Assembly (NCBI RefSeq): GCF_024138715.1
Contig: NZ_CP092074.1
Span: 2,542,001 to 2,606,000 of the forward strand
DNA from: Emticicia sp. 21SJ11W-3
Lineage (GTDB): Bacteria > Bacteroidota > Bacteroidia > Cytophagales > Spirosomataceae
Direction of reading: 5' to 3'
DNA length: 64,000 nucleotides
The position numbers and the translations under genes were made by a program. The first letter of the stretch is position 1. Every line of letters starts with the position of its first letter. The notes below the pieces were generated by a model, which saw only the letters and a list, made by a program, of their open reading frames with translations, was not told the origin of the DNA and made no database searches. This document shows positions 1,196-38,727 of the stretch, piece by piece.

Positions 1196-2563
1196 TTATG
1201 GATTGGGGAAGTTCCTGCCGGCATCGTCAAGAATCAGTACCCAGTCCTGCCCGTAACCATAGCGCGGTGGAGTGAACCGGTGTGTGCCTTTGTTTTCTAT
1301 CCGGGCAATGGCTTCTGTTTTACCCGTGCGAGGGTCAAACCAGTATGCATTAACTTGTAAGCCAGAAATCTTTCCCAGATTAACCGTAAATGAATTACCT
1401 ACCGCAGTATACACAAAGGCGTAGTTTTGCCCTCTGGTAGCCTGAATACGCTCGGCAGGAGGCAGGTTATTTTCTACAATTAATGACTGGTCAGGAACGC
1501 GGTCAAGAAAAGGGCGCGATTCTATCAGTTTTCTTAGCCATTGCATTTGTTTTGCACCCGGTAAATCAATGGCCTGTTGCCAGTAAATATGTGGATTATT
1601 GACGGCTTCGCGGTCAGGCGAATACATCTGCCAGATATCATGACAACCATAACTATGCCCGAATGCACCGGCAAATACATCCAGATACGCATATTTGCGT
1701 ACATCGTAGGCGTTTGTTGTTCCTAAGTCATGGGCATTGAAGCAAACGGGGTGGTCTTCATATATGGGTTCTCCGTCAATTACGGGTTTCGTGTTTGGCC
1801 GGTCGTATGCGCCCTTAATGTGGTCATAAATTGGGGTATCGCGACAATGACCGTTCTGAAACATGTTGAAGTCGAACCATGTATCGTCATGAAACCACTC
1901 ACTGGCTCCTTCTCTATTGGGCTGAGGGTGGTAGGTAATCAAAGCCTTGTCGTTACCACCTGCACCTTCTGTTATACCTGCGGCCATGGCTCGCCACACT
2001 TCTACATCGTTGGTATTGGGGCGGGGGTTACGGTCACCACCCAAAATCCAGATAATATTTTTTCTGTGCTTATATCTTTCAGCCAGCCATTTGCCATATA
2101 TACGCGCGTTACCAGTGTTAAATACCTCCGGGCCTTTTCCCCAGCTTGATTTGTTCAGCTTATCGCCCCAGGTAGGCAGGAAACCAATTATGAGACCATA
2201 TTCAGCAGCTTTGTCAATTACGTAGTCTACGTGCCTGAAATACGCCTCGTTAGGCCTTGAAGGGTCGTTATTTATCAGCGGCTTGTCTCCATACGGGTTA
2301 GGCACATTCAGGCCGTCAAACTCGGCCAGAGCAACAGCCTGTATAACGGTGTAATGTTGTGCCGCACGTTTTTTCAGATAATAGTCGGCGTCTTCACGAT
2401 TGAGGCGGTGGAATAGCTCCCAGGCGGTATCGCCTAACCAGAAAAACGGCTTGCCGTCTTTCAGAATAAACCGTTTGTTTTCACTTACGCTAAAGCTTTG
2501 TCCAGAGGCACCCAAGCCCATGAGCAACAGCAACAAGTAAATTAAAGTAGAAGAGAATTTCAT
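1196..2563 (-). CDS. Secreted glycoside hydrolase, DUF4038/GH140 (apiosidase-like)
   Basis: This is a 455-residue exported protein of the DUF4038 type, the TIM-barrel catalytic domain of family GH140. The founding GH140 members release apiose from the pectin rhamnogalacturonan II. The mature N-terminus reads FILKDGKPFFWLGDTAWELF, the classic opening of the family, and later carries LGGDRNPR and a C-terminal beta domain ending in WVLILDD. The start at 2563 (MKFSS) is preferred to an upstream ATG because it is followed directly by a hydrophobic signal peptide that ends in GASGQ. It stands alone, pointing left toward aconitase. Exact substrate is inferred only from the family; other pectic or arabinan side chains are possible. 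Confidence 0.85.
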   Translation of the reverse strand: MKFSSTLIYLLLLLMGLGASGQSFSVSENKRFILKDGKPFFWLGDTAWELFHRLNREDADYYLKKRAAQHYTVIQAVALAEFDGLNVPNPYGDKPLINNDPSRPNEAYFRHVDYVIDKAAEYGLIIGFLPTWGDKLNKSSWGKGPEVFNTGNARIYGKWLAERYKHRKNIIWILGGDRNPRPNTNDVEVWRAMAAGITEGAGGNDKALITYHPQPNREGASEWFHDDTWFDFNMFQNGHCRDTPIYDHIKGAYDRPNTKPVIDGEPIYEDHPVCFNAHDLGTTNAYDVRKYAYLDVFAGAFGHSYGCHDIWQMYSPDREAVNNPHIYWQQAIDLPGAKQMQWLRKLIESRPFLDRVPDQSLIVENNLPPAERIQATRGQNYAFVYTAVGNSFTVNLGKISGLQVNAYWFDPRTGKTEAIARIENKGTHRFTPPRYGYGQDWVLILDDAGRNFPNP

Positions 2564-2659
2564 TATTTTAATTTGTATAAGGTTTGAATAGCGATACAAT
2601 CTAAAAATAAAATCTGAAAATCAGGTATTGCATTGATTTTTAAGCCCTTTTAAGGCCAC

Positions 2660-2714: not shown

Positions 2715-3911
2715 TTATTCTTCAAAGAAGGCGCAACTGCCGCCGACCCAGTCGAAATTTTTATTAAAATTGACACCTATCATTTCGCCGCGGCTGAGCC
2801 TTGCCAGATTGGTTACAAGTGAAGGTCGCTGTGCAGCATCGTCCCACACAAATAGCATCCGTATTTCAGTTTTTATGAGCTTTCCCTCTGTATCTTCAAT
2901 AATTGGCTCATATTTTACTTTTTTCTGGATCAGATAATTTTCTTTGTCGCTGATAGCATCCAGGTCAGACTTCGTAAAAACAAGTTTTACGCCACTTCCT
3001 GCGAAGGAAAACAAGGGTTTAAGTACAAAGTTTTCTAAATCGGCAGGATATTCTTTTAAATCAGACAAATAATAACTTTCTGGCACATAAGGGCTCCTGA
3101 GCAGCGGTAATGTAAACTTACTGATTCTGAAAAACCAGTTGGGGTGTGTTACCCATTTTACATCTACGTCGTCAGTCAGTTTAAACTCTGTCTCTAAATC
3201 AGGATAATTCTGCAGCAGGTCATCAAAAATCAGCCGGTTGTAAATCCGTTTGATTTCAATCTGGCGGCCTTCTTTTTCATAAAAGAGTTTCCGTCCGTTT
3301 TTCGTTATTTTTGTATAACAAACCGGCTCAATACCCCAAAGTTGTTTGCTTATTTCAAAATCAAGCCTTGTTTTTTGCTTTTCAGGGTAAATTTCAAGCA
3401 GAATTACATTTTCGGCTTTTTCATTGCCTAACAATACTTTTCTCATGGCTTCTACATAAGTAGCCATATTTAGCCGGTTAAAAAACTGGTTAAAGTTTTT
3501 AGGTACGGCAAAAAACTTTCTGTATTTCTGGCCCAGATACCATTGATAAGCAAATAAAGACGGAAAACCCTGTAATTCTATCAGTTGTGGGATTAATTCG
3601 CCATTGGCGTCTTTACAAACCGCAAAATCAACAGCCAGAAAATTAGGGTGTTTATCTTCATTGGGCACATACTGATTAGCCGGAATAGCCCTTTCTGTCT
3701 TTGCCTTAAAATCATCTTTTTTTATGGTATCAATAATATCATTACAAGCCTGCAATAGCTTTATTTTCAATGCCTGGGGTACAAAAACGGGTGTTTCAGC
3801 AATGCGGAAGTCCAGTTGGCCGGGGAAGTCTCTTTCAATTTCAGCCAAAAAGGCTTCATATTTCTCTGTTGAAAAACTTTCGTTAAACTGGCGGCGTATT
3901 TCAGGTATCAT
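2715..3911 (-). CDS. Divergent ATP-grasp-like protein of unknown substrate
   Basis: A 398-residue cytoplasmic protein without signal peptide. The N-terminal half has a pre-ATP-grasp feel, with PNFLAVDFAV near residues 89-98 and LIELQGFPSLF near 110-120. The C-terminal half carries a plausible ATP-grasp core: NFVLKPLFSFAGSGV (Lys298 and the glycine loop at 303-308), then YLIQKKV, then EIRMLF at 349-354. A normal metal-binding E-x-N ending is hard to see; GVNFNKN at 379-385 may stand in for it. It is the last gene of the leftward cluster, 42 nt after the amidotransferase. It may ligate an amine to a carboxylate, as glutathionylspermidine synthases and other ATP-grasp enzymes do, but the substrate is unknown and the assignment rests on motif reading. 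Confidence 0.6.
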   Translation of the reverse strand: MIPEIRRQFNESFSTEKYEAFLAEIERDFPGQLDFRIAETPVFVPQALKIKLLQACNDIIDTIKKDDFKAKTERAIPANQYVPNEDKHPNFLAVDFAVCKDANGELIPQLIELQGFPSLFAYQWYLGQKYRKFFAVPKNFNQFFNRLNMATYVEAMRKVLLGNEKAENVILLEIYPEKQKTRLDFEISKQLWGIEPVCYTKITKNGRKLFYEKEGRQIEIKRIYNRLIFDDLLQNYPDLETEFKLTDDVDVKWVTHPNWFFRISKFTLPLLRSPYVPESYYLSDLKEYPADLENFVLKPLFSFAGSGVKLVFTKSDLDAISDKENYLIQKKVKYEPIIEDTEGKLIKTEIRMLFVWDDAAQRPSLVTNLARLSRGEMIGVNFNKNFDWVGGSCAFFEE

Positions 3912-3953
3912 AAATAGCGCTTTTAATAAATGTAAGAATAAATTTTGCTGATT

Positions 3954-4769
3954 TTATGCCAGCTCGACCAGATGCTCAGCCGCATTTCTCAGGAACGTCG
4001 GAATGATTACTGCCTCAGTTAGCATTATCTTGTCAGGGTCATCCAGCCTGTCAATCATTTCTTCATATTTGTCGGCCCCGTATTCTTTAATAACGGCCAG
4101 CATTTTTTCTTCCTGCTTAAAGTATCTCATCATGCCTTCAGAATCAGCTTCCGGGTGAAACTGCGTACCGAAGACTTCATCAGAGAACCTGATGGCCATA
4201 ATAGCCCGCTCTAAAGGAACATAAGGCCTGATTTTCTCGAGACATAGTACTTTGGCACCAAACGCGTTTATTTTATCCCAATCAGGTTGAATCAACTGAT
4301 AGTCTCTTGAGTCAACTGCATAAAATAGCTCAGGTAGTTTTTCAAATAATGGCTCGTTTTCACCTTCTTCCGTGCGGTGTATTGGCATTACACCAAATGA
4401 AGTAGACCTTCGCTTGCAAACGCTACCAAAGCCCAGATGATGACTGGCTATCTGAAAAGAATGACAAATCAGAAACAGGTATTTCTTCACCTCATGCGTT
4501 GCGTTGTAGGCAAAGATGCTGTCAATAAAGCCGGTAAATTTTTTCTCCCAAGGGTGCCCTTCAGGCAATGGGTTACCCGGGCCGCCGGTAGATATAAAAA
4601 TTTGATAATTGTATATATCGGGTATTTCGTTTTTCTGACGTACATCAAAAATGTCGTACTCACCACCCGTACCTTCCTGCGCCAGAAACTGGTCGCACAA
4701 CATTTTTATACAACGCATACCTTCGTTGGGTCGGCCGTCGTATAGGTCTAAAATCGCAATCTTCATCAT
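3954..4769 (-). CDS. Class I glutamine amidotransferase-like protein
   Basis: A 271-residue protein with the class I amidotransferase fold. STGGPGNP lies near residues 60-67, the nucleophile is in LICHSFQ (Cys102), and the catalytic His and Glu are in GTQFHPEAD (His205, Glu207). The nucleophile elbow reads ICHSF rather than the usual G-x-C-x-G, so it may be tuned for another role than donating ammonia, for example hydrolysing gamma-glutamyl bonds. Other relatives of this family act as gamma-glutamyl hydrolases. The ~65-residue C-terminal extension after the triad is helical and of unknown use. It follows the GCS2 gene by 192 nt, a gap that contains a strong hairpin. A role in making or trimming the cluster's product is inferred. 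Confidence 0.75.
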   Translation of the reverse strand: MMKIAILDLYDGRPNEGMRCIKMLCDQFLAQEGTGGEYDIFDVRQKNEIPDIYNYQIFISTGGPGNPLPEGHPWEKKFTGFIDSIFAYNATHEVKKYLFLICHSFQIASHHLGFGSVCKRRSTSFGVMPIHRTEEGENEPLFEKLPELFYAVDSRDYQLIQPDWDKINAFGAKVLCLEKIRPYVPLERAIMAIRFSDEVFGTQFHPEADSEGMMRYFKQEEKMLAVIKEYGADKYEEMIDRLDDPDKIMLTEAVIIPTFLRNAAEHLVELA

Positions 4770-4777
4770 AATAAGGG

Positions 4778-4798
4778 GCTTATGAGTAGCATCATAAG
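4778..4798. repeat. Short inverted repeat upstream of the amidotransferase gene
   Basis: CTTATGA and TCATAAG arms flank a 7-nt spacer (GTAGCA region), 8 nt upstream of the amidotransferase start codon. The symmetry could be an operator half-site pair or an RNA hairpin in the leader; nothing decides between them. Confidence 0.4.
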
Positions 4799-4877
4799 GC
4801 TTATTTTAGTAAAAAATAACACAAATTTAACAAAATCTACTGATATACAGGGTCTAAATACCCTTAAAAGAAGGCAA

Positions 4878-4909
4878 ATCCTGCAAGTTAGTGTGCTAAC
4901 CTACAGGAT
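4878..4909 (-). terminator. Hairpin inside the cluster, between GCS2 and amidotransferase genes
   Basis: ATCCTG ... CAGGAT outer arms and GTTAG ... CTAAC inner arms form a two-part stem with a TGTG loop and a 3-nt internal bulge on each side. On the minus strand it is followed by a T-rich stretch (TTTGCCTTCTTTT). It lies 52 nt after the GCS2 stop. It could be a partial terminator or an RNA-processing site that lowers expression of the last two genes. Confidence 0.5.
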
Positions 4910-4961
4910 CTGGCCTTTACAATTCATTAAAAACACTTCGTTCTGGTCTGTTTGTTCCTTA

Positions 4962-6059
4962 TTACAAACCAATTCTGGTTTCGGAGACTATGTAATCAAC
5001 CACCGACTTCATGTTTTGGGTTTGTTCAAACACCCGCAGCTGTCTGTCGGCTCCGGTACCCATCTTTAAAATTTCATGTATGTATTCCACTTCTTTACGG
5101 CTACCCAGTTCGTCAAGTACATCATCAACAAACTCAATGAGTTCTTCGGCCAGGTGGCTGTAAGGTACTTCTATTTCTTTACCAAAATCAATCAGGTTTC
5201 CGGCTATACCGTACCGGGCCGCACGCCATTTGTTTTCGCTGATGAGCATCCGGTGGTAGGGTCTGAAACTCAGGTTCTGTTGGTGCAACTTATGTATTTT
5301 AGCCACTATTGCCTGCATTAAAGCAGCCAGACAGATGGTTTCGTCGGCACGCATTGGGATATCGCAGATACGGAACTCAACCGTAGGATATACCGGATGC
5401 AGGCGGATATCCCACCAGATTTTCTTGCCGTTATCAATACAGTTGGTTTTAATAAGCAGGTTTACGTAGTTGTCGTACTCTGCCACGCTTGAAAAATAAT
5501 CTGGTATACCAGTTCTCGGGAATTTGTCGAAAACCTTTGAGCGATACGACTTAAAGCCGGTATTGCGCCCACACCAGAACGGCGAATTGGTTGACAAGGC
5601 GTATATGTGCGGCAGAAAATAGCGGGCGGTGTTTAGAATCTGCATGCCTTCTTCACGATTTGGAATACCCACATGAACGTGTAAGCCAAAAATAAGATTT
5701 GAACGAGCCACATCACGCATGTCGTCAATCAGTTTTTCATACCTTTCGTTGGGGGTAATAAGTTGCCGTTGCCAGTCAGAAAAAGGGTGCGTACCCGCAG
5801 CGGCGATGTGTAGGTTTTGCTTAGCTGCAAGGTCGAACAGCATTCGGCGCAGGTAAGTAACTTCTTCACGCGCCTGTTGAATGTTCTCGCACACACTTGA
5901 TATCATCTCTACCACTGCCTGGTGCATTTCCTGCTTGATTCTCTCCTGCAGAATCACCTGGCCGCCCTCTACAATTTTAGACATGTGCGAACGAAGCTCA
6001 CGGGTTTTGGGGTCAATAGTCTGAAATTCTTCCTCAATACCTAGTGTAAATTGCGCCAT
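4962..6059 (-). CDS. Carboxylate-amine ligase, glutamate-cysteine ligase family 2 (YbdK-like)
   Basis: The 365-residue protein opens with FTLGIEEEFQ (Glu9-Glu11), the signature of the GCS2 family, and has the HVHVGIPN strand near residue 127 that forms part of the active site. GCS2 enzymes join the gamma-carboxylate of glutamate, or a related acid, to an amine or amino acid using ATP, through a phosphorylated intermediate. E. coli YbdK has only weak glutamate-cysteine ligase activity, so the true substrate of the family is often unknown. No glutathione synthetase-type gene is seen here; instead an ATP-grasp gene lies 83 nt upstream. It therefore probably makes a first amide bond in a pathway other than plain glutathione synthesis. 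Confidence 0.88.
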   Translation of the reverse strand: MAQFTLGIEEEFQTIDPKTRELRSHMSKIVEGGQVILQERIKQEMHQAVVEMISSVCENIQQAREEVTYLRRMLFDLAAKQNLHIAAAGTHPFSDWQRQLITPNERYEKLIDDMRDVARSNLIFGLHVHVGIPNREEGMQILNTARYFLPHIYALSTNSPFWCGRNTGFKSYRSKVFDKFPRTGIPDYFSSVAEYDNYVNLLIKTNCIDNGKKIWWDIRLHPVYPTVEFRICDIPMRADETICLAALMQAIVAKIHKLHQQNLSFRPYHRMLISENKWRAARYGIAGNLIDFGKEIEVPYSHLAEELIEFVDDVLDELGSRKEVEYIHEILKMGTGADRQLRVFEQTQNMKSVVDYIVSETRIGL

Positions 6060-6142
6060 AATTTTCTTAGTTCAGGATGTATAAGAGAGAAACAGTTTAG
6101 CTTGGGTGGGTAATAAACCCGTATTACCCACCAAGATAAAAA

Positions 6143-7249
6143 TTATTTTTTCTTTGCAACTGTTTTAGCGGCAGGTTCTTCTTTTTTGGCCGGGGCTTTT
6201 TTATCTTTTGCAACTTTTGGCGCAGTTTCAGCTTTTTTTACGGCAGGAGCCTTTTTCTCGGGCGCAGCCGGCTGTAAGGTGGTAGTCAGCAAATCGCTAC
6301 CGGTAATTGATGCCCGTGTGAAGGTGCCCCATGTACAGTTGTTTTTACCATCTTGTTGCTCTATGGCTCTTTCAATGGCCATTTTGGCGGCATTTTTTAC
6401 AATCCAATCAAAGTTTTCGTTACCTACCGAATTGATGTCGGCATCAGGGGCAGGGTTGCAGAAGTCAATGGCATACGGAATACCATTGCGAACGGCAAAC
6501 TCTACCGTGTTGAAATCATAACCTAATGCGTGGTTGAGTTTTAATACGTAATCTGTAATGGTTTCCATCAGTTTTTTGTGCTCTTCACCCTGTGTTTTAG
6601 GCTGAGTAGCATAACGTAAATGATGCGGATTACGCGGCTCATAAGGCATAATGTGCACATATTTGCCATTGAGGCAGTAGCAACGGTAATAATCAGTAAA
6701 CTCTATTTCTTCCTGCAGCATCATTACCAGCTGGCCTGTTTCTTCGTGTTTCTGCCATAGGTCGTTCGGGTCATAAACTTTATATACGCTTTTCCAGCCG
6801 CCACCGGCGTGGGGTTTCATATAGGCCGGAAAACCAATCTGACCGAACATATATTCCCAATCCATCGGAAACTTCAGGTTACGGAACGAACGGTCGGTGG
6901 TGTCGGTTGGTCTCTCTTTCGACGGAAGCAACACCGTTTTTGGCACAGGAACACCCAGCTTTACAGCCAGGCAGTTATTGAAAAACTTTTCGTCGGCGCT
7001 CCACCAGAATGGGTTATTGATAACAGCCGTGCCGCACAACGCCGCGTTTTTAAGATACGCCCGATAAAAAGGTACATCCTGCGATATCCTGTCAATAATT
7101 ACTGCGTAATCTGTTGCTACGCCCTGTTCTACCTTGTCAATCAACACGGGTTCGGCAATGATACCGGCCGGGGCTGTTCTGTTTACTTCTTCAATAAATG
7201 CCCACGGAAATGTATCTTCCATTCCAAAAAGAATTCCTATTTTTTTCAT
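6143..7249 (-). CDS. ATP-grasp ligase with Lys/Ala-rich C-terminal tail
   Basis: A 368-residue cytoplasmic ATP-grasp enzyme. Residues 1-100 form a preATP-grasp domain resembling D-Ala-D-Ala ligase. PAYMKPHAGGGW (Lys145, glycines 149-151) is the nucleotide-binding loop, LQEEIEF near 178 lies at the adenine site, and E250 with IDFCNP (Asp262, Asn265) gives the metal ligands. Such enzymes join a carboxylate to an amine through an acylphosphate. The last ~41 residues (about 328-368) are low-complexity, with 14 Lys and 12 Ala plus Pro, resembling a histone H1-like tail, and are not part of the catalytic fold. The gene is second in the leftward cluster, 58 nt after the esterase and 83 nt before the GCS2 gene. 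The substrate is unknown. Confidence 0.8.
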   Translation of the reverse strand: MKKIGILFGMEDTFPWAFIEEVNRTAPAGIIAEPVLIDKVEQGVATDYAVIIDRISQDVPFYRAYLKNAALCGTAVINNPFWWSADEKFFNNCLAVKLGVPVPKTVLLPSKERPTDTTDRSFRNLKFPMDWEYMFGQIGFPAYMKPHAGGGWKSVYKVYDPNDLWQKHEETGQLVMMLQEEIEFTDYYRCYCLNGKYVHIMPYEPRNPHHLRYATQPKTQGEEHKKLMETITDYVLKLNHALGYDFNTVEFAVRNGIPYAIDFCNPAPDADINSVGNENFDWIVKNAAKMAIERAIEQQDGKNNCTWGTFTRASITGSDLLTTTLQPAAPEKKAPAVKKAETAPKVAKDKKAPAKKEEPAAKTVAKKK

Positions 7250-7307
7250 GATGCTATGCTTTGTTATAATTGCTTTAGTATTTGTTTTTCTTTGATTAAA
7301 TTCTTGT

Positions 7308-8027
7308 TTAAAGTTCGCCTGCCAGCATTTTGCCTACATACTCAGGGAACATCATGCGCCAGAGAGGCCAGTCGTGCGATGCCCACTGTTTCTCGTCATA
7401 CCAATGATGAATACCTCTTGAACGCAAAATGTGTGACATATTGACGTTGTCTGCCTTGCAGATGTCCCAGTCTGATGTGCCCAATACTATTTTCATGTGG
7501 TTGTATTTCCAACCTTCCTGGCTTTGCATGTAGTCAACCGGGTTGTTAAAATAAACGTTATCATCAAAATGGCCTTTCATAAAGCTTTTGATGTCAAACG
7601 CACCACTCATGCTGAAACAATACTCAACTAAATCGGGATATTTCAGGGCAAAATTGGTACAATGAAACCCTCCGAAACTACACCCGGCTACTGCAATGCG
7701 GTGTACGCTGCATTCGCGCTGAATGGCTGGCACCAGCTCTTCTTTTATAAACCTGGTATAGAGGTTATAGTTATGAATCTTTACGTCGGGTGGTAGGTCG
7801 CGGCCATAAAAACTCTGAAAATCGATGCTGTCTACGTTATATAACTTCACTCTGCCATCGTTAACAAACTGAGCTATGGAATGGTTAAGGCCGAAGTCAC
7901 GATTCTGAAGATAATTGCCCATTGAGGTAGGAAACATAAGAATAGGGTAGCCCCAGTGGCCGCTTACCAGTAAATCAATGTCTCTGCCCAGAATATGAGA
8001 ATAGAATTTAATGTGTCGTTCGTCCAT
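7308..8027 (-). CDS. Alpha/beta-hydrolase, esterase-like (COG4947 type)
   Basis: A 239-residue alpha/beta hydrolase with no signal peptide. The nucleophile elbow is GCSFGG (Ser117), an acid is offered by TSDWDIC (Asp186 or Asp188) and the base by ASHDWPLW (His218), in the expected order. It is the first gene of the leftward cluster and has a 373-bp gap upstream that it shares with a divergently transcribed second esterase. Within an amide-forming pathway it may cleave or release a conjugate, or transfer an acyl group. The family has no well-defined substrate, so this is inference from context. Confidence 0.78.
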   Translation of the reverse strand: MDERHIKFYSHILGRDIDLLVSGHWGYPILMFPTSMGNYLQNRDFGLNHSIAQFVNDGRVKLYNVDSIDFQSFYGRDLPPDVKIHNYNLYTRFIKEELVPAIQRECSVHRIAVAGCSFGGFHCTNFALKYPDLVEYCFSMSGAFDIKSFMKGHFDDNVYFNNPVDYMQSQEGWKYNHMKIVLGTSDWDICKADNVNMSHILRSRGIHHWYDEKQWASHDWPLWRMMFPEYVGKMLAGEL

Positions 8028-8400
8028 ACAGTTTTGCAGGCTTTTATGTTTTGGTTTTTGATGATTTACTGATGTTTATTTTAGAAAATCTGTCACAAAA
8101 TTGGCTTAATAAATGCAAACGATAAAAGATTGAACCGAATAAAATACTTGCAATGAGTAAATTGAATTATTGATTTGAGTCTAAAATTCTGACAATGACA
8201 GGTCATGTAAAATAAAATATTGTTTTATGGCATTCTGGTGTTTTAGCGTATTGAATTTGTAATTTTGCCAGAACAAAACAATTCATTGAAATATTAGTCG
8301 ATTTTGCTCAATGTTACAAATGATTTCTGGAAAATTTGTTGACATGCTGTGGCCAAAAACTAATGTTTCAGTTTTTTTGTCATCTAAAACCTAATCAAAA
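8028..8400. other. Divergent intergenic region between two esterase genes
   Basis: This 373-bp AT-rich stretch separates the leftward cluster from the rightward esterase and must hold promoters for both. One -7 box for the rightward gene can be read (TAATTTTG at 8260-8267). No clear CAAAnnTA box for the leftward cluster and no RNA gene or open reading frame was found. Confidence 0.6.
8237..8267 (+). promoter_or_regulatory. Candidate promoter of the rightward esterase
   Basis: TAATTTTG at 8260-8267 matches the Bacteroidota -7 consensus TAnnTTTG. At the expected 19-nt distance upstream only GGTG is present instead of TTTG, so the -33 element is weak. The leader would be about 125 nt. Confidence 0.3.
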
Positions 8401-9204
8401 GTGCATTTCATTTCAGTTAAGAAGAACTTAAAAATTTACTCAGAACACCTAAAAAGAGAAGTTGTTTACGACATCATTTTGCCGCATCAGCACTCAACTC
8501 AACAGTCTTCATATAAAGTTTTATTGATGAACGACGGGCAGGACCTGGCCGCGCTGCAAATAGAGCGCGTACTGCAAAACCTCTATGCGAACAACGAAAT
8601 TGTGCCTTTTGTTTTGGCAGCCATACATACCAACGAGAACCGCCTGAAAGAATATGGTACTTCTGCCATGCCTGATTACAAAAACAGGGGTAATATGGCC
8701 GGTAAATATGAACATTTTATAATTCAGGAGTTTTTACCGTTAATTAGACAGACGTACCAAACCTCATTACAAATGGAAGACAACTACTTTTGCGGGTTTT
8801 CGCTGGGTGGGCTGTCGGCTATGGATATTACCCGCAGCAACCCGGATGTTTTTTCTAAAGTCGGGGTTTTTAGTGGTTCGTTCTGGTGGCGCAAAAAAGC
8901 CTATGAGGAGGGCTATGACGACGAAAACGACCGCATTATGCATGTGCTGGTGAGAAACGGGCGTTACCATACCGGACAAAAATTCTGGTTTGAGTGCGGC
9001 ACAAACGATGAAAAAGACGACCGTAACGGCAACGGAATTATAGATTCTATTGAAGATACTCTTGATTTAATAACAGAATTAGAAAAACTGGGTTATACTC
9101 AAAAGGAAGACATTGTTTATTATGAAATAAATGGCGGAGAACATAACTACCAGACCTGGAGCCAGGCCATGCCCGTTTTTCTGAAATGGTTGGTAGGTAA
9201 ATAA
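8401..9204 (+). CDS. Putative esterase (enterochelin esterase-like, COG2819 type)
   Basis: A 267-residue esterase of the esterase-D/IroE-like type. LMNDGQD lies near residues 42-48, the nucleophile is in CGFSLGG (Ser134), and GGEHNYQTWSQAMP near the end provides the catalytic His. The start is a GTG at 8401; the next in-frame ATG is 42 residues on and would remove the first strands of the fold, so the GTG is preferred. No signal peptide is seen. It is divergent from the ATP-grasp/GCS2 cluster and shares its regulatory gap, so it may hydrolyse an ester or amide of the same product. The substrate is unknown. Confidence 0.8.
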   Translation: MHFISVKKNLKIYSEHLKREVVYDIILPHQHSTQQSSYKVLLMNDGQDLAALQIERVLQNLYANNEIVPFVLAAIHTNENRLKEYGTSAMPDYKNRGNMAGKYEHFIIQEFLPLIRQTYQTSLQMEDNYFCGFSLGGLSAMDITRSNPDVFSKVGVFSGSFWWRKKAYEEGYDDENDRIMHVLVRNGRYHTGQKFWFECGTNDEKDDRNGNGIIDSIEDTLDLITELEKLGYTQKEDIVYYEINGGEHNYQTWSQAMPVFLKWLVGK

Positions 9205-9235: not shown

Positions 9236-11854
9236 ATGCTTAGACTGACACTTATTTCTGTTCTTGTTTTTTTCAGCACTTTAGTGCGTGCCGGAGGCAT
9301 AAAAGGCATAGTAACTGACGCTAACGGAGAGCGTATGGCGTTTACCTCTGTTATAGTAAAAGGACAAAACGCCGGAACCATGACCAATGCGGAAGGTGAG
9401 TATAGGATAAATCTGAAACCGGGCAGTTATGAGATTAACTTTCAGTTTGTAGGCTTTAAAACCGTTACCCGCCGTGTGGTTGTGGCTAATGATTTTACCG
9501 AGCTGAATGTGCGTATGCAAGAGCAAACCATTATGCTGCAGGAGGCCAGAATAAGTGCCAAAGAAGAAGACGCCGCCTATACCATTATGCGCAAGGCAAT
9601 AGCCAAAAGCAAAATTCATCAGAAACAGGTGGTGAGCTACCAGGCAAATGCTTATGTGCGTAATTCAATATTACTCAACAAAATTCCGCTGGTGCTCAAA
9701 AAGGACCTTTACCGACAAAACATTAAAGAGGGGATACCGTTTTTGTCTGAGTCGGTAATGGAAATAGTTTTCAACGAGCCCAACTCTAAATTTACCAAGG
9801 TGCTGGGGCAAAAGAGTTCTTTCAACAATATTTCTATTTCTGACGGTTTTTATCTTTTCGATTTCTACGACCCCGGTCATTACCGTGTTTCGCCGCTTTC
9901 GCCACAGGCTTTCAGATACTACCGCTTTGAATACGAAGGTTTTTTTGAAGACCGCGGCCTGATTATCAATAAAATAAAAATCATTCCGAAGTCGTTTGGG
10001 GAAGGCGTTTGGCAGGGAACCATTTATATTATAGACGATTACTGGAATATTCATAGCATTGATGCTGAAACTATTGAAAACGGCCTTAATCTTAAAATAA
10101 ACCAGTATTACAGCCCGGTTGAGAAAGTCTGGATGCCAATTAACCAGCGGATAGATTTTTACGGAAAATTGTTTGGATTTGACTTTGTTATTAAGGCACA
10201 GTTAAATGCCGGTTATACTGCCGTAAAAACGAATCCGGCGTTTGTGGAAGACATAAAAATTATTGACGAGAAAAAAGAGGGGATAACGATTGAAGGTATT
10301 TCGAAAAATTCTTTGAAAAATTCGAAAACTGAAGAACTACTGAAAGACAGCAAAGAGTTTTCGGTGAGGAATCTCATGAAAATAATGAAAGATTATGAGA
10401 AAGAAGAAAGAACCCGGGCCAGAGCCAACAAAGAAGAAGCAGCGGTTGTAAGCAGAGAATTAATGATAGTAGAGCCATCTGCCAGAGGCAAAGATTCTAC
10501 TTTTTGGAATTCTATGCGCAAAATACCACTTACCAATGAAGAAAGCGAAAGCTATCAATACAGTGACAGTGTAAAAATAGCAAAAATTGAAAAAAGAGAC
10601 AGCCTTCAAAGAGATTCGCTTAGTAAAGCCTGGCGGTACTTTTTGTTAAATTATGATTTTAAATTAAAAAATGGCAGATATCTGCATTTTGAACCACCCT
10701 ACACCCCGTTTGTGGGTTTAAATTATAATTCGGTTGAAGGCATTGTGTCTGATATGGGTGTCGGCTTTAAAAACTATACATCTCTGGGCGCTAAACCCAG
10801 AGTCAGATACAATGTGTCGGCAAATATGCGTTATGCTTTTCAGGCCAGGGCATTGCGTGGTAAAGTGGGCGGAGAATACGAGGTTGGCACATCAAAGCTA
10901 TCGGTTGGTGCGGGAAATTATATTGAACAATTTGACCCCAACAGCCTCATTTTTGAATGGATGAACACCGTAACCACTTTGTTCAATGAGCAAAACCTGA
11001 TGAAGATTTACAGCAAGAAATTCGTTAACATTGGCTATAGCTATAATGAAGACGCCAGGTTGACTTTTTCAACCAATATGGAACTGGCAAGAAGGTCTCC
11101 GCTGGAAAACCTTCAGAAAATATACCGGATAAAAGATTTTGAAAAAAACGGGTTTTCGCCTAATAATCCTTCCAATCTTGAGCTCGGCGAAAGCGCTTTT
11201 ACTACACACAATGCGCTTATATGGCAGAATATGATAAAATGGACGCCGTCTTCTAAAGTGATTATCAGAAACGGCGTGCGCAAGTATCTGACCGGCGGAG
11301 CGCCCATTATTACATTTATTTACAAGAAAGGAATGCTTGACGCCAATTTTGACTACCTGAGCCTGAATATAAAGCAACATGTAAACACAGGGGTATTGGG
11401 CAAACTAGACTATATGGTTGAAGTAGGTGATTACGTGAACGACCGCAGCGTTTACCTGATGGATATGAAACATATTAACAATAGCTACCTGAATGCCCTG
11501 CGGATTGGTCTTTTTGCCAGATACCGGTTGTTAGAAACCCGTATGCCCCTGCCTGAAGATAACGGAGCCAAATCTATAAACCTTTACCGTTTTAGTACCA
11601 AAGGCGCATATTTGCAGGCCCATGTAATTAATGAATTTAAGCAGCTTATTTTTACCCGTCTGCCTTTTGTAAAGAGATGGGGGCTAAAAGAAGACCTCTT
11701 TGCCAATTATCTGAACACGCCGGCTGTAAAAAACTATATAGAAGTTGGTTATGGTATTGATGGCATCATGAGGGCATTAAGAATTGAAGCCGTAAGCAGT
11801 TTTGAAAACGGCGTATACAAGAGGTCCGGTATTAAATTAGGTGTAACCATGTAA
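9236..11854 (+). CDS. DUF5686 outer-membrane protein with carboxypeptidase-like regulatory domain
   Basis: An 872-residue envelope protein. A short signal peptide (LISVLVFFSTLVRAGG) is followed by a CarboxypepD_reg-like beta-sandwich (GIKGIVTDANGERMAFTSV, residues ~22-100) as in TonB-dependent receptors, then the long DUF5686 region ending in a beta-barrel-like C-terminus with alternating aromatic strands. There is no TonB plug. The family is restricted largely to Bacteroidota and its function is not known; it may be an outer-membrane assembly or surface protein. The gene starts 31 nt after the esterase and is followed after 26 nt by the transpeptidase-like gene, so the three may be co-transcribed. 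A second member lies at 45868-48360. Confidence 0.85.
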   Translation: MLRLTLISVLVFFSTLVRAGGIKGIVTDANGERMAFTSVIVKGQNAGTMTNAEGEYRINLKPGSYEINFQFVGFKTVTRRVVVANDFTELNVRMQEQTIMLQEARISAKEEDAAYTIMRKAIAKSKIHQKQVVSYQANAYVRNSILLNKIPLVLKKDLYRQNIKEGIPFLSESVMEIVFNEPNSKFTKVLGQKSSFNNISISDGFYLFDFYDPGHYRVSPLSPQAFRYYRFEYEGFFEDRGLIINKIKIIPKSFGEGVWQGTIYIIDDYWNIHSIDAETIENGLNLKINQYYSPVEKVWMPINQRIDFYGKLFGFDFVIKAQLNAGYTAVKTNPAFVEDIKIIDEKKEGITIEGISKNSLKNSKTEELLKDSKEFSVRNLMKIMKDYEKEERTRARANKEEAAVVSRELMIVEPSARGKDSTFWNSMRKIPLTNEESESYQYSDSVKIAKIEKRDSLQRDSLSKAWRYFLLNYDFKLKNGRYLHFEPPYTPFVGLNYNSVEGIVSDMGVGFKNYTSLGAKPRVRYNVSANMRYAFQARALRGKVGGEYEVGTSKLSVGAGNYIEQFDPNSLIFEWMNTVTTLFNEQNLMKIYSKKFVNIGYSYNEDARLTFSTNMELARRSPLENLQKIYRIKDFEKNGFSPNNPSNLELGESAFTTHNALIWQNMIKWTPSSKVIIRNGVRKYLTGGAPIITFIYKKGMLDANFDYLSLNIKQHVNTGVLGKLDYMVEVGDYVNDRSVYLMDMKHINNSYLNALRIGLFARYRLLETRMPLPEDNGAKSINLYRFSTKGAYLQAHVINEFKQLIFTRLPFVKRWGLKEDLFANYLNTPAVKNYIEVGYGIDGIMRALRIEAVSSFENGVYKRSGIKLGVTM

Positions 11855-11880
11855 AATCAGGCTTGCTTAGGTTTTAAGAT

Positions 11881-12579
11881 ATGGGTTCAGACAATTTGCT
11901 TCAAAAACAATTACTTTACGAACGTGTGGCTAATGCCTATAAGGCAAAAAGTGCCATGCTTGACAGTATTTTAGTTGAAAAATCAATTAAAAACAGAAAT
12001 TTCAGGCTCTTTATCAGGGTATTTAAAAAGGAGCAATTACTTGAAGCCTGGATAAAACACCCTGAAAAAATAAGGTATGAATTGCTAAGAAAGTATAACT
12101 TTACAGGTAGCTCAGGTAATTTGGGCCCTAAGCGGAAATCAGGCGACGGGCAAATTCCGGAAGGAATCTATCAAATTACTAATTTTAATCCTTTAAGTGC
12201 CTTTCATTTGTCGCTCAGAGTAAATTACCCAAATATTGCAGATATACATTGGGCTGATAGCGAACACCCGGGTGGAGATATTTACCTGCATGGCGGTAAC
12301 ACAAGTACAGGGTGTATTCCGGTGGGTGATGATTGCATTGAAGAACTTTACCTGCTCTCGGTTTATGCTGCTGATGCAGGCCATTTGCCAGACGTACATA
12401 TTTACCCTTCCAGTATGGCTGGCGCAGCTTTTAACTCACTTATTACAGGCCATAGCAATAATATACACCTGATTGATTTCTGGCATAAGCTAAAAGCAAT
12501 TTTTGATGATTTTGAGCAAACAAATGCGCTGAAATCAATAAAAACAGACCAGAAAGGCCATTATTATCTGGCAGACTAA
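11881..12579 (+). CDS. L,D-transpeptidase-like protein (YkuD/YafK type) without signal peptide
   Basis: The 232-residue protein carries the YkuD-type active site: IYLHGG (His137) followed by STGCIPV (Ser142, Gly144, Cys145). GDGQIPEGIYQI near residues 88-99 is the opening strand of that domain. L,D-transpeptidases cross-link or trim peptidoglycan, or attach proteins to it, in the periplasm. The N-terminus (MGSDNLLQKQLL) is polar and shows no signal peptide, and an in-frame TAA sits only 4 nt before the ATG, so the frame cannot be extended. Either export uses another route, the N-terminus is altered, or the enzyme acts elsewhere. YafK-type identity is a fair guess. Confidence 0.78.
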   Translation: MGSDNLLQKQLLYERVANAYKAKSAMLDSILVEKSIKNRNFRLFIRVFKKEQLLEAWIKHPEKIRYELLRKYNFTGSSGNLGPKRKSGDGQIPEGIYQITNFNPLSAFHLSLRVNYPNIADIHWADSEHPGGDIYLHGGNTSTGCIPVGDDCIEELYLLSVYAADAGHLPDVHIYPSSMAGAAFNSLITGHSNNIHLIDFWHKLKAIFDDFEQTNALKSIKTDQKGHYYLAD

Positions 12580-38498: not shown

Positions 38499-38525
38499 CA
38501 GTGTCTTCGCAATACCTTTCAATCG

Positions 38526-38657
38526 GGTTAACGGTTTTTATTGAGGCTTGCTTTAATAAAACCAAGAAGGAATCGTGTGCGAATCACGAACAGACGTGCT
38601 ACTGTAATTAAATGTTCTTTAGAGAATAGTTTAAAAGTCAGATACTTGCCGTTAACC
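38526..38657 (+). promoter_or_regulatory. Cobalamin (B12) riboswitch upstream of metE
   Basis: GGTTAACGG (38526-38534) pairs perfectly with CCGTTAACC (38649-38657) to close the aptamer. Inside are the conserved B12 elements: GGAATCGTGTGCGAATCACGA with its internal GTG/CAC stem, GCTACTGTAA (the ACTGT core), and the B12-box AAGTCAGATACTTGCC. Aptamer size is normal. Binding of adenosyl- or methylcobalamin is expected to shut off metE, the B12-independent methionine synthase, when B12 is available. This implies the cell can obtain B12 and has a B12-dependent MetH elsewhere. Confidence 0.93.
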
Positions 38658-38727
38658 TAAATGGCTATGCCTTCACGATTAAGGTTTTAGTCAAGCATTG
38701 TTTTTATAGAATCAAAAAAAGGATGTT

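What the first reader, a model, noticed from the sequence alone, without database searches (positions are those of the whole stretch)
2715..9204. Uncharacterised amidoligase cluster: ATP-grasp + GCS2 + class I amidotransferase + second ATP-grasp-like protein, framed by two esterases
Seen directly: five leftward genes with recognisable ligase and hydrolase active sites (GIEEEF of GCS2, KPHAGGGW of ATP-grasp, ICHSF/FHPEAD of the amidotransferase, GCSFGG of the hydrolase), plus a divergent esterase. Known: GCS2 and ATP-grasp enzymes form amide bonds through acylphosphates, and gene neighbourhoods mixing these families have been proposed by comparative genomics (work on amidoligases by the Aravind group) to make unknown peptides or conjugates. 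Inferred: this set could build a gamma-glutamyl- or oligo-amino-acid conjugate, then edit (amidotransferase) and release (esterases) it. It is the best candidate in the window for a system without a described product.
Basis: partly seen in the sequence, partly recalled or inferred. Interest (0 to 1): 0.8.

Follow-up and report, generated by a model that had tools for sequence, protein, structure and literature searches.

The report
Bacteroidota peptide-conjugate ligase operon
A five-gene operon found in many Bacteroidota bacteria encodes three amide-bond-making enzymes and partner hydrolases that probably build and take apart a small, still unidentified peptide-like molecule.

Summary
Five same-strand genes (8027-2715) and a divergent esterase (8401-9204) lie where stated. 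They form a real operon, widespread in Bacteroidota: of 80 named loci, 62 were long enough to judge and 51 of these keep A-B-C-D-E.

In 296 Bacteroidota genomes, ATP-grasp B (>=48% identity) is in 104. All 104 also carry E or a substitute, X: 88 E only, 15 X only, one both.

E has no Pfam or NCBIfam match. Its model (pLDDT 92.7) is a circularly permuted ATP-grasp like glutathionylspermidine synthase, YgiC and eukaryotic glutathione synthase. X matches CP_ATPgrasp_2. E keeps the ATP-site lysines and two metal-site acids, but lacks the R-x-D arginine and has ExQ instead of ExN.

The genome has no GshB-type glutathione synthetase match and has BshC, so plain glutathione synthesis is unlikely.

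Best reading: these enzymes make a peptide-amide conjugate (B extends, E/X caps, C adds gamma-glutamyl); D, or an M29 aminopeptidase in its place, and the esterases take it apart. The product is unknown. I found no description in the held library; the key 2009 amidoligase paper was not readable.

The parts
7308..8027 (-). Gene A: alpha/beta hydrolase (PF00756), first gene of the leftward operon; Ser117 of GCSFGG, Asp188, His218
   Evidence: S117 in 44 of 48, D188 in 48 of 48, H218 in 45 of 48 aligned relatives
6143..7249 (-). Gene B: ATP-grasp ligase of Ddl/LysX-like fold, with a 51-aa Ala/Lys-rich tail that is not conserved
   Evidence: K145, E250 and D262 in 104 of 105 and N265 in 103 of 105; tails listed
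4962..6059 (-). Gene C: GCS2 carboxylate-amine ligase (PRK13515/YbdK type), probable gamma-glutamyl ligase
   Evidence: E9 and E11 in 60 of 62 (two gaps), E228 and R230 in 62 of 62
3954..4769 (-). Gene D: class I glutamine-amidotransferase-like hydrolase with Cys102-His205-Glu207
   Evidence: all three residues in 54 of 54 aligned
2715..3911 (-). Gene E: circularly permuted ATP-grasp of glutathionylspermidine-synthase/YgiC fold; no Pfam or NCBIfam family
   Evidence: D95, E112, Q114, K265, K298 in 92 of 92 aligned
8401..9204 (+). Gene F: second esterase (PF00756), divergent from A
   Evidence: divergent upstream in 41 of 62 evaluable named loci, same strand upstream in 12
8028..8400 (.). 373-bp divergent intergenic region between A and F, presumed to hold both promoters
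   Evidence: ORFs wholly inside it are at most 37 aa; promoter-like matches in the wider region not above shuffles (18 against 16.5)
4770..4961 (-). 192-bp C-D gap with a 17-pair terminator-like hairpin at 4912-4875
   Evidence: 8 terminator-like sites in the region, shuffles 7.2 with sd 2.4, so chance is not excluded

Best explanation
This is a conserved Bacteroidota operon for making and breaking a small cytosolic peptide-amide conjugate. Shown by comparison: B and a ligase of the circularly permuted ATP-grasp kind (E, or X in other families) are the regular pair; C, D, A and F accompany them; the ligase and hydrolase active sites are largely conserved. Inferred: B (Ddl/LysX-like) joins an activated carboxylate to the amino group of an amino acid. 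E or X then activates the carboxyl end of that peptide and couples it to an amine or amino acid, as YgiC and Gss do with spermidine and glutathione synthase does with glycine. C adds a gamma-glutamyl group where it is present. D (replaced by an M29 aminopeptidase in some lineages) and the esterases A and F cut the conjugate or its precursor, so its level can be set. The amine partner is most likely a polyamine or an amino acid; the genome has the polyamine gene nspC.
For: Order A-B-C-D-E in 51 of 62 evaluable named loci (18 of 80 too short). B at >=48% identity in 104 of 296 genomes, all 104 with E or X (88 E only, 15 X only, one both). In G033, G043, G059, G269 and G292 B and E lie on one contig at least 190 kb apart, so the pairing is not only linkage. 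X sits directly beside B in 15 of 15 X-only genomes (places). C at >=47% (93 genomes) and D at >=41% (70 genomes) occur in the sample only with B, E or X. E model pLDDT 92.7; its 34 PDB matches at E<=0.001 are a putative glutathionylspermidine synthase, eukaryotic glutathione synthases and synthetase-like proteins, YgiC, YjfC, E. coli Gss and Cp1B. E profile against YgiC: E 0.0059 in the PDB, 1.3e-5 in a one-to-one hhalign. The E. coli record calls YgiC peptide--spermidine ligase; passages of PMC12568646 cite that work and show that Cp1B makes an amide with an L-amino acid. M29 aminopeptidase between C and E in five loci whose genomes lack D. M17 aminopeptidase and a third ATP-grasp in L220. 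NspC over its cut-off in the genome.
Against: No substrate or product is known. E lacks the arginine of R-x-D (position 93 never R in 92 aligned) and has ExQ (92 of 92) where YgiC, Gss and X have R-x-D and ExN, and both motifs matter in Cp1B, so E may use another substrate or chemistry. A single-sequence search of solved structures with E found nothing of use, and hhalign of E with Gss was not significant (E 0.14). C is missing in 5 of 92 E genomes and 9 of 15 X-only genomes, D in 37 of 92 E genomes, so no fixed five-step pathway holds everywhere. Three E genomes lack B. E or X goes by family, so the 104 cases are far from independent. NspC shows only that a polyamine can be made.
Confidence: 0.45

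Rival explanations
1. Amine use through gamma-glutamylated intermediates, in the manner of the Puu pathway (recalled): C gamma-glutamylates an amine and D removes the gamma-glutamyl group later.
For: C is a GCS2 ligase and D a class I GATase-like hydrolase with an intact Cys-His-Glu; one E protein is fused to a sodium:solute symporter (L041).
Against: Outside A-F no neighbour family recurs in more than 13 of 92 E loci, so no oxidase or dehydrogenase is a conserved partner (most neighbours were not annotated). D matches PF00117, and no PF07722 match was reported. Two regular ATP-grasps are not needed for such a route.
Confidence: 0.15
2. A glutathione-like low-molecular-weight thiol pathway: C makes gamma-glutamylcysteine, E (of eukaryotic glutathione-synthase fold) adds a third residue, and B extends further.
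For: E has the fold of eukaryotic glutathione synthases; C belongs to the wider glutamate-cysteine-ligase family.
Against: C scores 558 bits for PRK13515 but 58 bits for gshA_cyano (cut-off 249). The genome has no TIGR01380 match and has BshC of bacillithiol synthesis (GshF not searched). C is absent, at >=47%, from genomes that keep B and E.
Confidence: 0.15
3. A ribosomal peptide (graspetide) system whose small precursor gene was overlooked, or ligation of amino acids to a protein as RimK does.
For: The B model also resembles graspetide ligases PsnB, MdnC and the Chryseobacterium enzyme 7mgv, and LysX/ArgX that work with the carrier LysW. B has a weak rimK_fam match.
Against: No convincing precursor ORF in the two longer gaps of the window. 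Median gaps in named loci are 57, 33, 46 and 13 nt. B and E are far apart in some genomes. The B tail varies from 0 to 114 residues.
Confidence: 0.15
4. Mostly a catabolic or scavenging operon in which the hydrolases are the main activity and the ligases recycle what they release.
For: Several hydrolases per locus, with M17 or M29 aminopeptidases in some.
Against: The ligases, not the hydrolases, are the regular part (B with E or X in 104 of 104; D in 55 of 92 E genomes).
Confidence: 0.1

Closest known systems
YgiC/YjfC peptide-spermidine ligases and Gss (glutathionylspermidine synthetase) of E. coli
   Same: Same circularly permuted ATP-grasp fold as E; K265, K298, D95 and E112 fall on like residues of YgiC and Gss
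   Different: E lacks the R of R-x-D and has ExQ not ExN; 11-15% identity in the fold alignments; no amidase domain as in Gss; E sits with B, C and D
Eukaryotic glutathione and homoglutathione synthases
   Same: Fold of E, TM-score by query 0.45-0.63
   Different: No sequence family match; no TIGR01380 glutathione synthetase in the genome
Cp1B of the fungal E-64 pathway
   Same: Stand-alone ATP-grasp of the same fold that makes an amide with an L-amino acid and works with a second amide ligase
   Different: Partner ligase is an ANL enzyme, not ATP-grasp or GCS2; going by motif, R139 and N165 of Cp1B have no like residue in E (Cp1B itself was not aligned)
YbdK family carboxylate-amine ligases (PRK13515)
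   Same: C is a full member by score
   Different: The three plasmid relatives of 69 whose surroundings I read (Paracoccus, Spirosoma, Mycobacterium) do not show the cluster in their annotation
Ddl, LysX/ArgX and graspetide ATP-grasp ligases
   Same: Fold of B; K145 aligns with a Ddl lysine; the roles of K88 and Q179-E180 are recalled
   Different: B ends its metal motif as D-x-x-N (D262, N265) rather than the usual E-x-N (recalled); no family cut-off reached
Amidoligase gene neighbourhoods of Iyer, Aravind and co-workers (2009, recalled)
   Same: General idea of ATP-grasp, GCS2 and hydrolase clusters
   Different: The paper is not held, so whether this exact cluster was listed there could not be checked

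Membership tests
GCS2 / YbdK carboxylate-amine ligase (gene C) | Score over the curated cut-off | tested here: met
   PF04107 220 bits (cut-off 21); NF010039 558 bits (cut-off 371); TIGR02050 310 bits (cut-off 176)
Class I glutamine amidotransferase fold (gene D) | Cys-His-Glu triad | tested here: met
   C102, H205, E207 in 54 of 54; PF00117 over cut-off
Class I glutamine amidotransferase fold (gene D) | Glutaminase that passes ammonia to a synthase | not testable with these tools
   A biochemical property
ATP-grasp ligase (gene B) | Fold and ATP-site lysines | tested here: met
   Foldseek 511 PDB chains at E<=0.001, led by Ddl; model pLDDT 78, residues 317-368 below 50; K88 in 100 and K145 in 104 of 105 (role of K88 recalled)
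RimK / R2K subfamily (gene B) | Score over the curated cut-off | tested here: not met
   rimK_fam 28 of 143 bits; R2K_2 20.4 of 26.2 bits
Circularly permuted ATP-grasp of glutathionylspermidine/glutathione synthase fold (gene E) | Same fold over the whole chain | tested here: met
   All 34 PDB chains at E<=0.001 belong to this fold group by title
YgiC/Gss peptide-spermidine ligase family (gene E) | R-x-D and E-x-N catalytic motifs | tested here: not met
   D95 and E112 kept; position 93 never R and position 114 always Q in 92 aligned proteins
YgiC/Gss peptide-spermidine ligase family (gene E) | Peptide-spermidine ligase activity | not testable with these tools
   Needs purified enzyme
CP_ATPgrasp_2 (protein X of the second cluster type) | Score over the curated cut-off | tested here: met
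   PF14403 32.5 bits (cut-off 32); PF04174 27.8 (cut-off 23.1); one representative. R-x-D and E-x-N kept in 12 of 12 aligned X
Glutathione biosynthesis | GshB-type synthetase in the genome | tested here: not met
   TIGR01380: no match in G000; rings in 8 of 14 control genomes, over cut-off in 3; GshF not searched
Ergothioneine biosynthesis | EgtB and EgtD beside the ligase | tested here: not met
   None among the matches of the ten proteins scanned at this end of the window; rest of the genome not searched
Anti-phage defence | Match to PADLOC-DB | tested here: not met
   0 families for all six proteins

The most novel reading that the evidence does not exclude
Much of the Bacteroidota makes a dedicated peptidyl-amine conjugate, comparable to glutathionylspermidine but built by a separate two-ATP-grasp machine (B plus E or X). 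It would be decorated by a gamma-glutamyl ligase and switched off by its own hydrolases, making it a new class of core metabolite in the phylum.
Probability: 0.25. Interest if true: 0.85.

Novelty: new variant of a known kind. Interest (0 to 1): 0.6.

Why it matters
Ligase B is in 104 of 296 sampled Bacteroidota genomes, always with a second ligase, which points to a common metabolite whose identity I could not find in print. It also gives a family-less protein (E) a fold, a partner and a likely chemistry, and makes the product directly testable by gene deletion and LC-MS.

Tried and rejected
Plain glutathione or ergothioneine pathway: judged unlikely. Defence system: no PADLOC match. Mobile or viral gene set: no match for B (E limit 1e-10) or E (1e-5) in the plasmid collection; 84 pattern hits in viral contigs, none a relative of B. 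Hidden precursor peptide: nothing convincing. B tail as a conserved substrate: it varies from 0 to 114 residues. One common profile for E, X and B: weak or none (E against X E 0.009, E against B 0.56, X against B 0.039); X against YgiC 0.27, E against Gss 0.14, X against Gss 0.037. Lineage-specific neighbours such as an aromatic amino acid lyase beside B in L130 were not followed. Promoter and terminator scans were not above shuffles. Literature: searches listed no paper on this cluster; I saw listings only, except passages of PMC4431377 and PMC12568646. The YgiC/YjfC paper (Pederick 2023) was seen only as a reference.

Named loci and sampled genomes overlap (for example L189 is the G190 contig and L204 the G265 contig). 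Genome counts are not corrected for relatedness. The B-E identity comparison used 25 genomes taken as unlinked; one, G251, proved to be split by a contig end. Without it, 24 genomes give Spearman 0.81 (0.74 before); several of the 24 are drafts where linkage cannot be excluded. ORFs in loci were called by a simple longest-ORF script, so starts are approximate; in L154, L157 and L163 it missed X, which one search found.
Full report
Observation. The window lies at 2542001-2606000 of a 5.18-Mb single-contig genome. The nearest named relative found with protein B is Emticicia sp. C21, at 89% identity (which may leave out very near records). Five genes run leftward: A 8027-7308, B 7249-6143, C 6059-4962, D 4769-3954, E 3911-2715. 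F runs rightward from 8401 to 9204. Gaps are 58, 83, 192 and 42 bp, with 373 bp between A and F. Pfam and NCBIfam give esterase for A and F, GCS2/PRK13515 for C and class I GATase for D. B gets only weak ATP-grasp matches and E gets none.

Conservation of the cluster. A search of 296 Bacteroidota genomes found E in 92. About 20 kb, or less at contig ends, was fetched around the matches of the 91 other genomes (92 loci, one genome giving two). All-against-all clustering of ORFs in these loci gave five leading families: E in 90 loci, C in 50, B in 48, D in 40 and the esterases in 38. No other family reached more than 13 loci. Of 80 named loci found with B, 18 had less than 2.5 kb before or 6 kb after B and were not judged; 51 of the other 62 had A-B-C-D-E in order on one strand. 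F was divergent upstream in 41 and on the same strand upstream in 12 of the 62.

Presence and absence. B at >=48% identity is in 104 of 296 genomes; all 104 have E or X: 88 E only, 15 X only, one (G137) both, with a 36% X. Five weaker B relatives were dropped before this count. Three E genomes (G144, G154, G220) lack B. C at >=47% is in 93 genomes, all with B, E or X: 87 of 92 E genomes and 6 of 15 X-only genomes; nine lower matches (34-40%) stand in genomes without B. D at >=41% is in 70 genomes, all with B, E or X: 55 of 92 E genomes and 15 of 15 X-only genomes. Linkage is not constant. In G033, G043, G059, G269 and G292 B and E lie on one contig at least 190 kb apart. In 24 genomes where they were not found together, B and E identities rank alike (Spearman 0.81), which shared descent alone could also give. 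X-only genomes fall in nine families in which no E was found, so the swap may reflect few events.

Variants. Type 2 loci read A-B-X-D-esterase in the fullest cases, with X in the place of C and E. X is directly beside B in 15 of 15 X-only genomes (places); a representative is CP_ATPgrasp_2. In five loci (L042, L048, L062, L096, L097) an M29-type aminopeptidase lies between C and E, and these five genomes (G255, G093, G271, G251, G055) have no D at >=41%. In 14 of the 80 named loci the listing shows F, a protein of about 470 aa and one of about 400 aa ahead of A; for L220 these are an M17 aminopeptidase and another ATP-grasp. In L041, E is the C-terminal part of an 867-aa ORF that begins with a sodium:solute symporter.

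Structures. E was modelled from 43 sequences with mean pLDDT 92.7. Foldseek's 34 PDB chains at E<=0.001 are all glutathionylspermidine synthase, glutathione synthase or synthetase-like, YgiC/YjfC or Cp1B entries. The E profile finds only YgiC among solved sequences (E 0.0059, limit 10), and a one-to-one hhalign gives 1.3e-5 over 80 columns, while the same test against Gss gives 0.14. Alignment with E. coli YgiC and Gss puts D95, E112, K265, K298 and Q329 on like residues. The R of R-x-D is absent in all 92 aligned E proteins and N of E-x-N is Q in all 92; X keeps both motifs in 12 of 12. In Cp1B, replacing R139, D141, E163 or N165 by alanine abolished or significantly lowered activity (passage of PMC12568646). 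E is therefore similar in fold and probably in type of chemistry, but is not filed as a YgiC/Gss member. B was modelled at pLDDT 78 with a tail below 50. Its best fold matches are Ddl, graspetide ligases and LysX/ArgX.

Mechanism. Shown: conserved ligase and hydrolase active sites in one operon, with B paired to E or X. Inferred: B and E/X make two amide bonds in sequence, C adds a gamma-glutamyl unit, and D or the M29 enzyme and the esterases cut. No signal peptide is evident by eye in A-F, so the work is probably cytosolic. The genome has NspC of polyamine synthesis, so a polyamine partner is possible but not shown.

Against a plain thiol pathway: no TIGR01380 match and a BshC over its cut-off. 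GshF, BshA, BshB and the ergothioneine genes were not searched genome-wide.

Novelty. The searches listed no paper on this cluster, but the 2009 amidoligase survey is not held. I rate it a new variant of the known kind of amidoligase neighbourhoods, interesting for its breadth and its unknown product.

The B floor was corrected to 48% and the unlinked comparison from 25 to 24 genomes.

Noticed in passing
window 38515-38667 (+): Cobalamin riboswitch (RF00174, 61.6 bits)
   Followed up: no
window 1196-2599 (-): Apiosidase-like gene with putative collagen-binding domain just downstream of the operon
   Followed up: no
window 9236-12579 (+): DUF5686 protein with carboxypeptidase-regulatory-like domain, then a YkuD-type L,D-transpeptidase
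   Followed up: no
L041:7937-10537: E fused behind a sodium:solute symporter; a hint at what the ligase handles
   Followed up: partly
L145, L151, L152, L156, L158-L162, L164-L166: Second cluster type with X of CP_ATPgrasp_2 beside B
   Followed up: yes
L206, L212, L217, L219, L220 and nine more named loci: Chryseobacterium-group version with two extra genes ahead of A; in L220 they are an M17 aminopeptidase and a third ATP-grasp
   Followed up: partly
window 4912-4875 (-): 17-pair hairpin with T-rich tail between C and D, possible attenuator
   Followed up: no
L130, L131, L136, L139, L141, L146: A shared neighbour family next to or near B, an aromatic amino acid lyase by Pfam in L130
   Followed up: no
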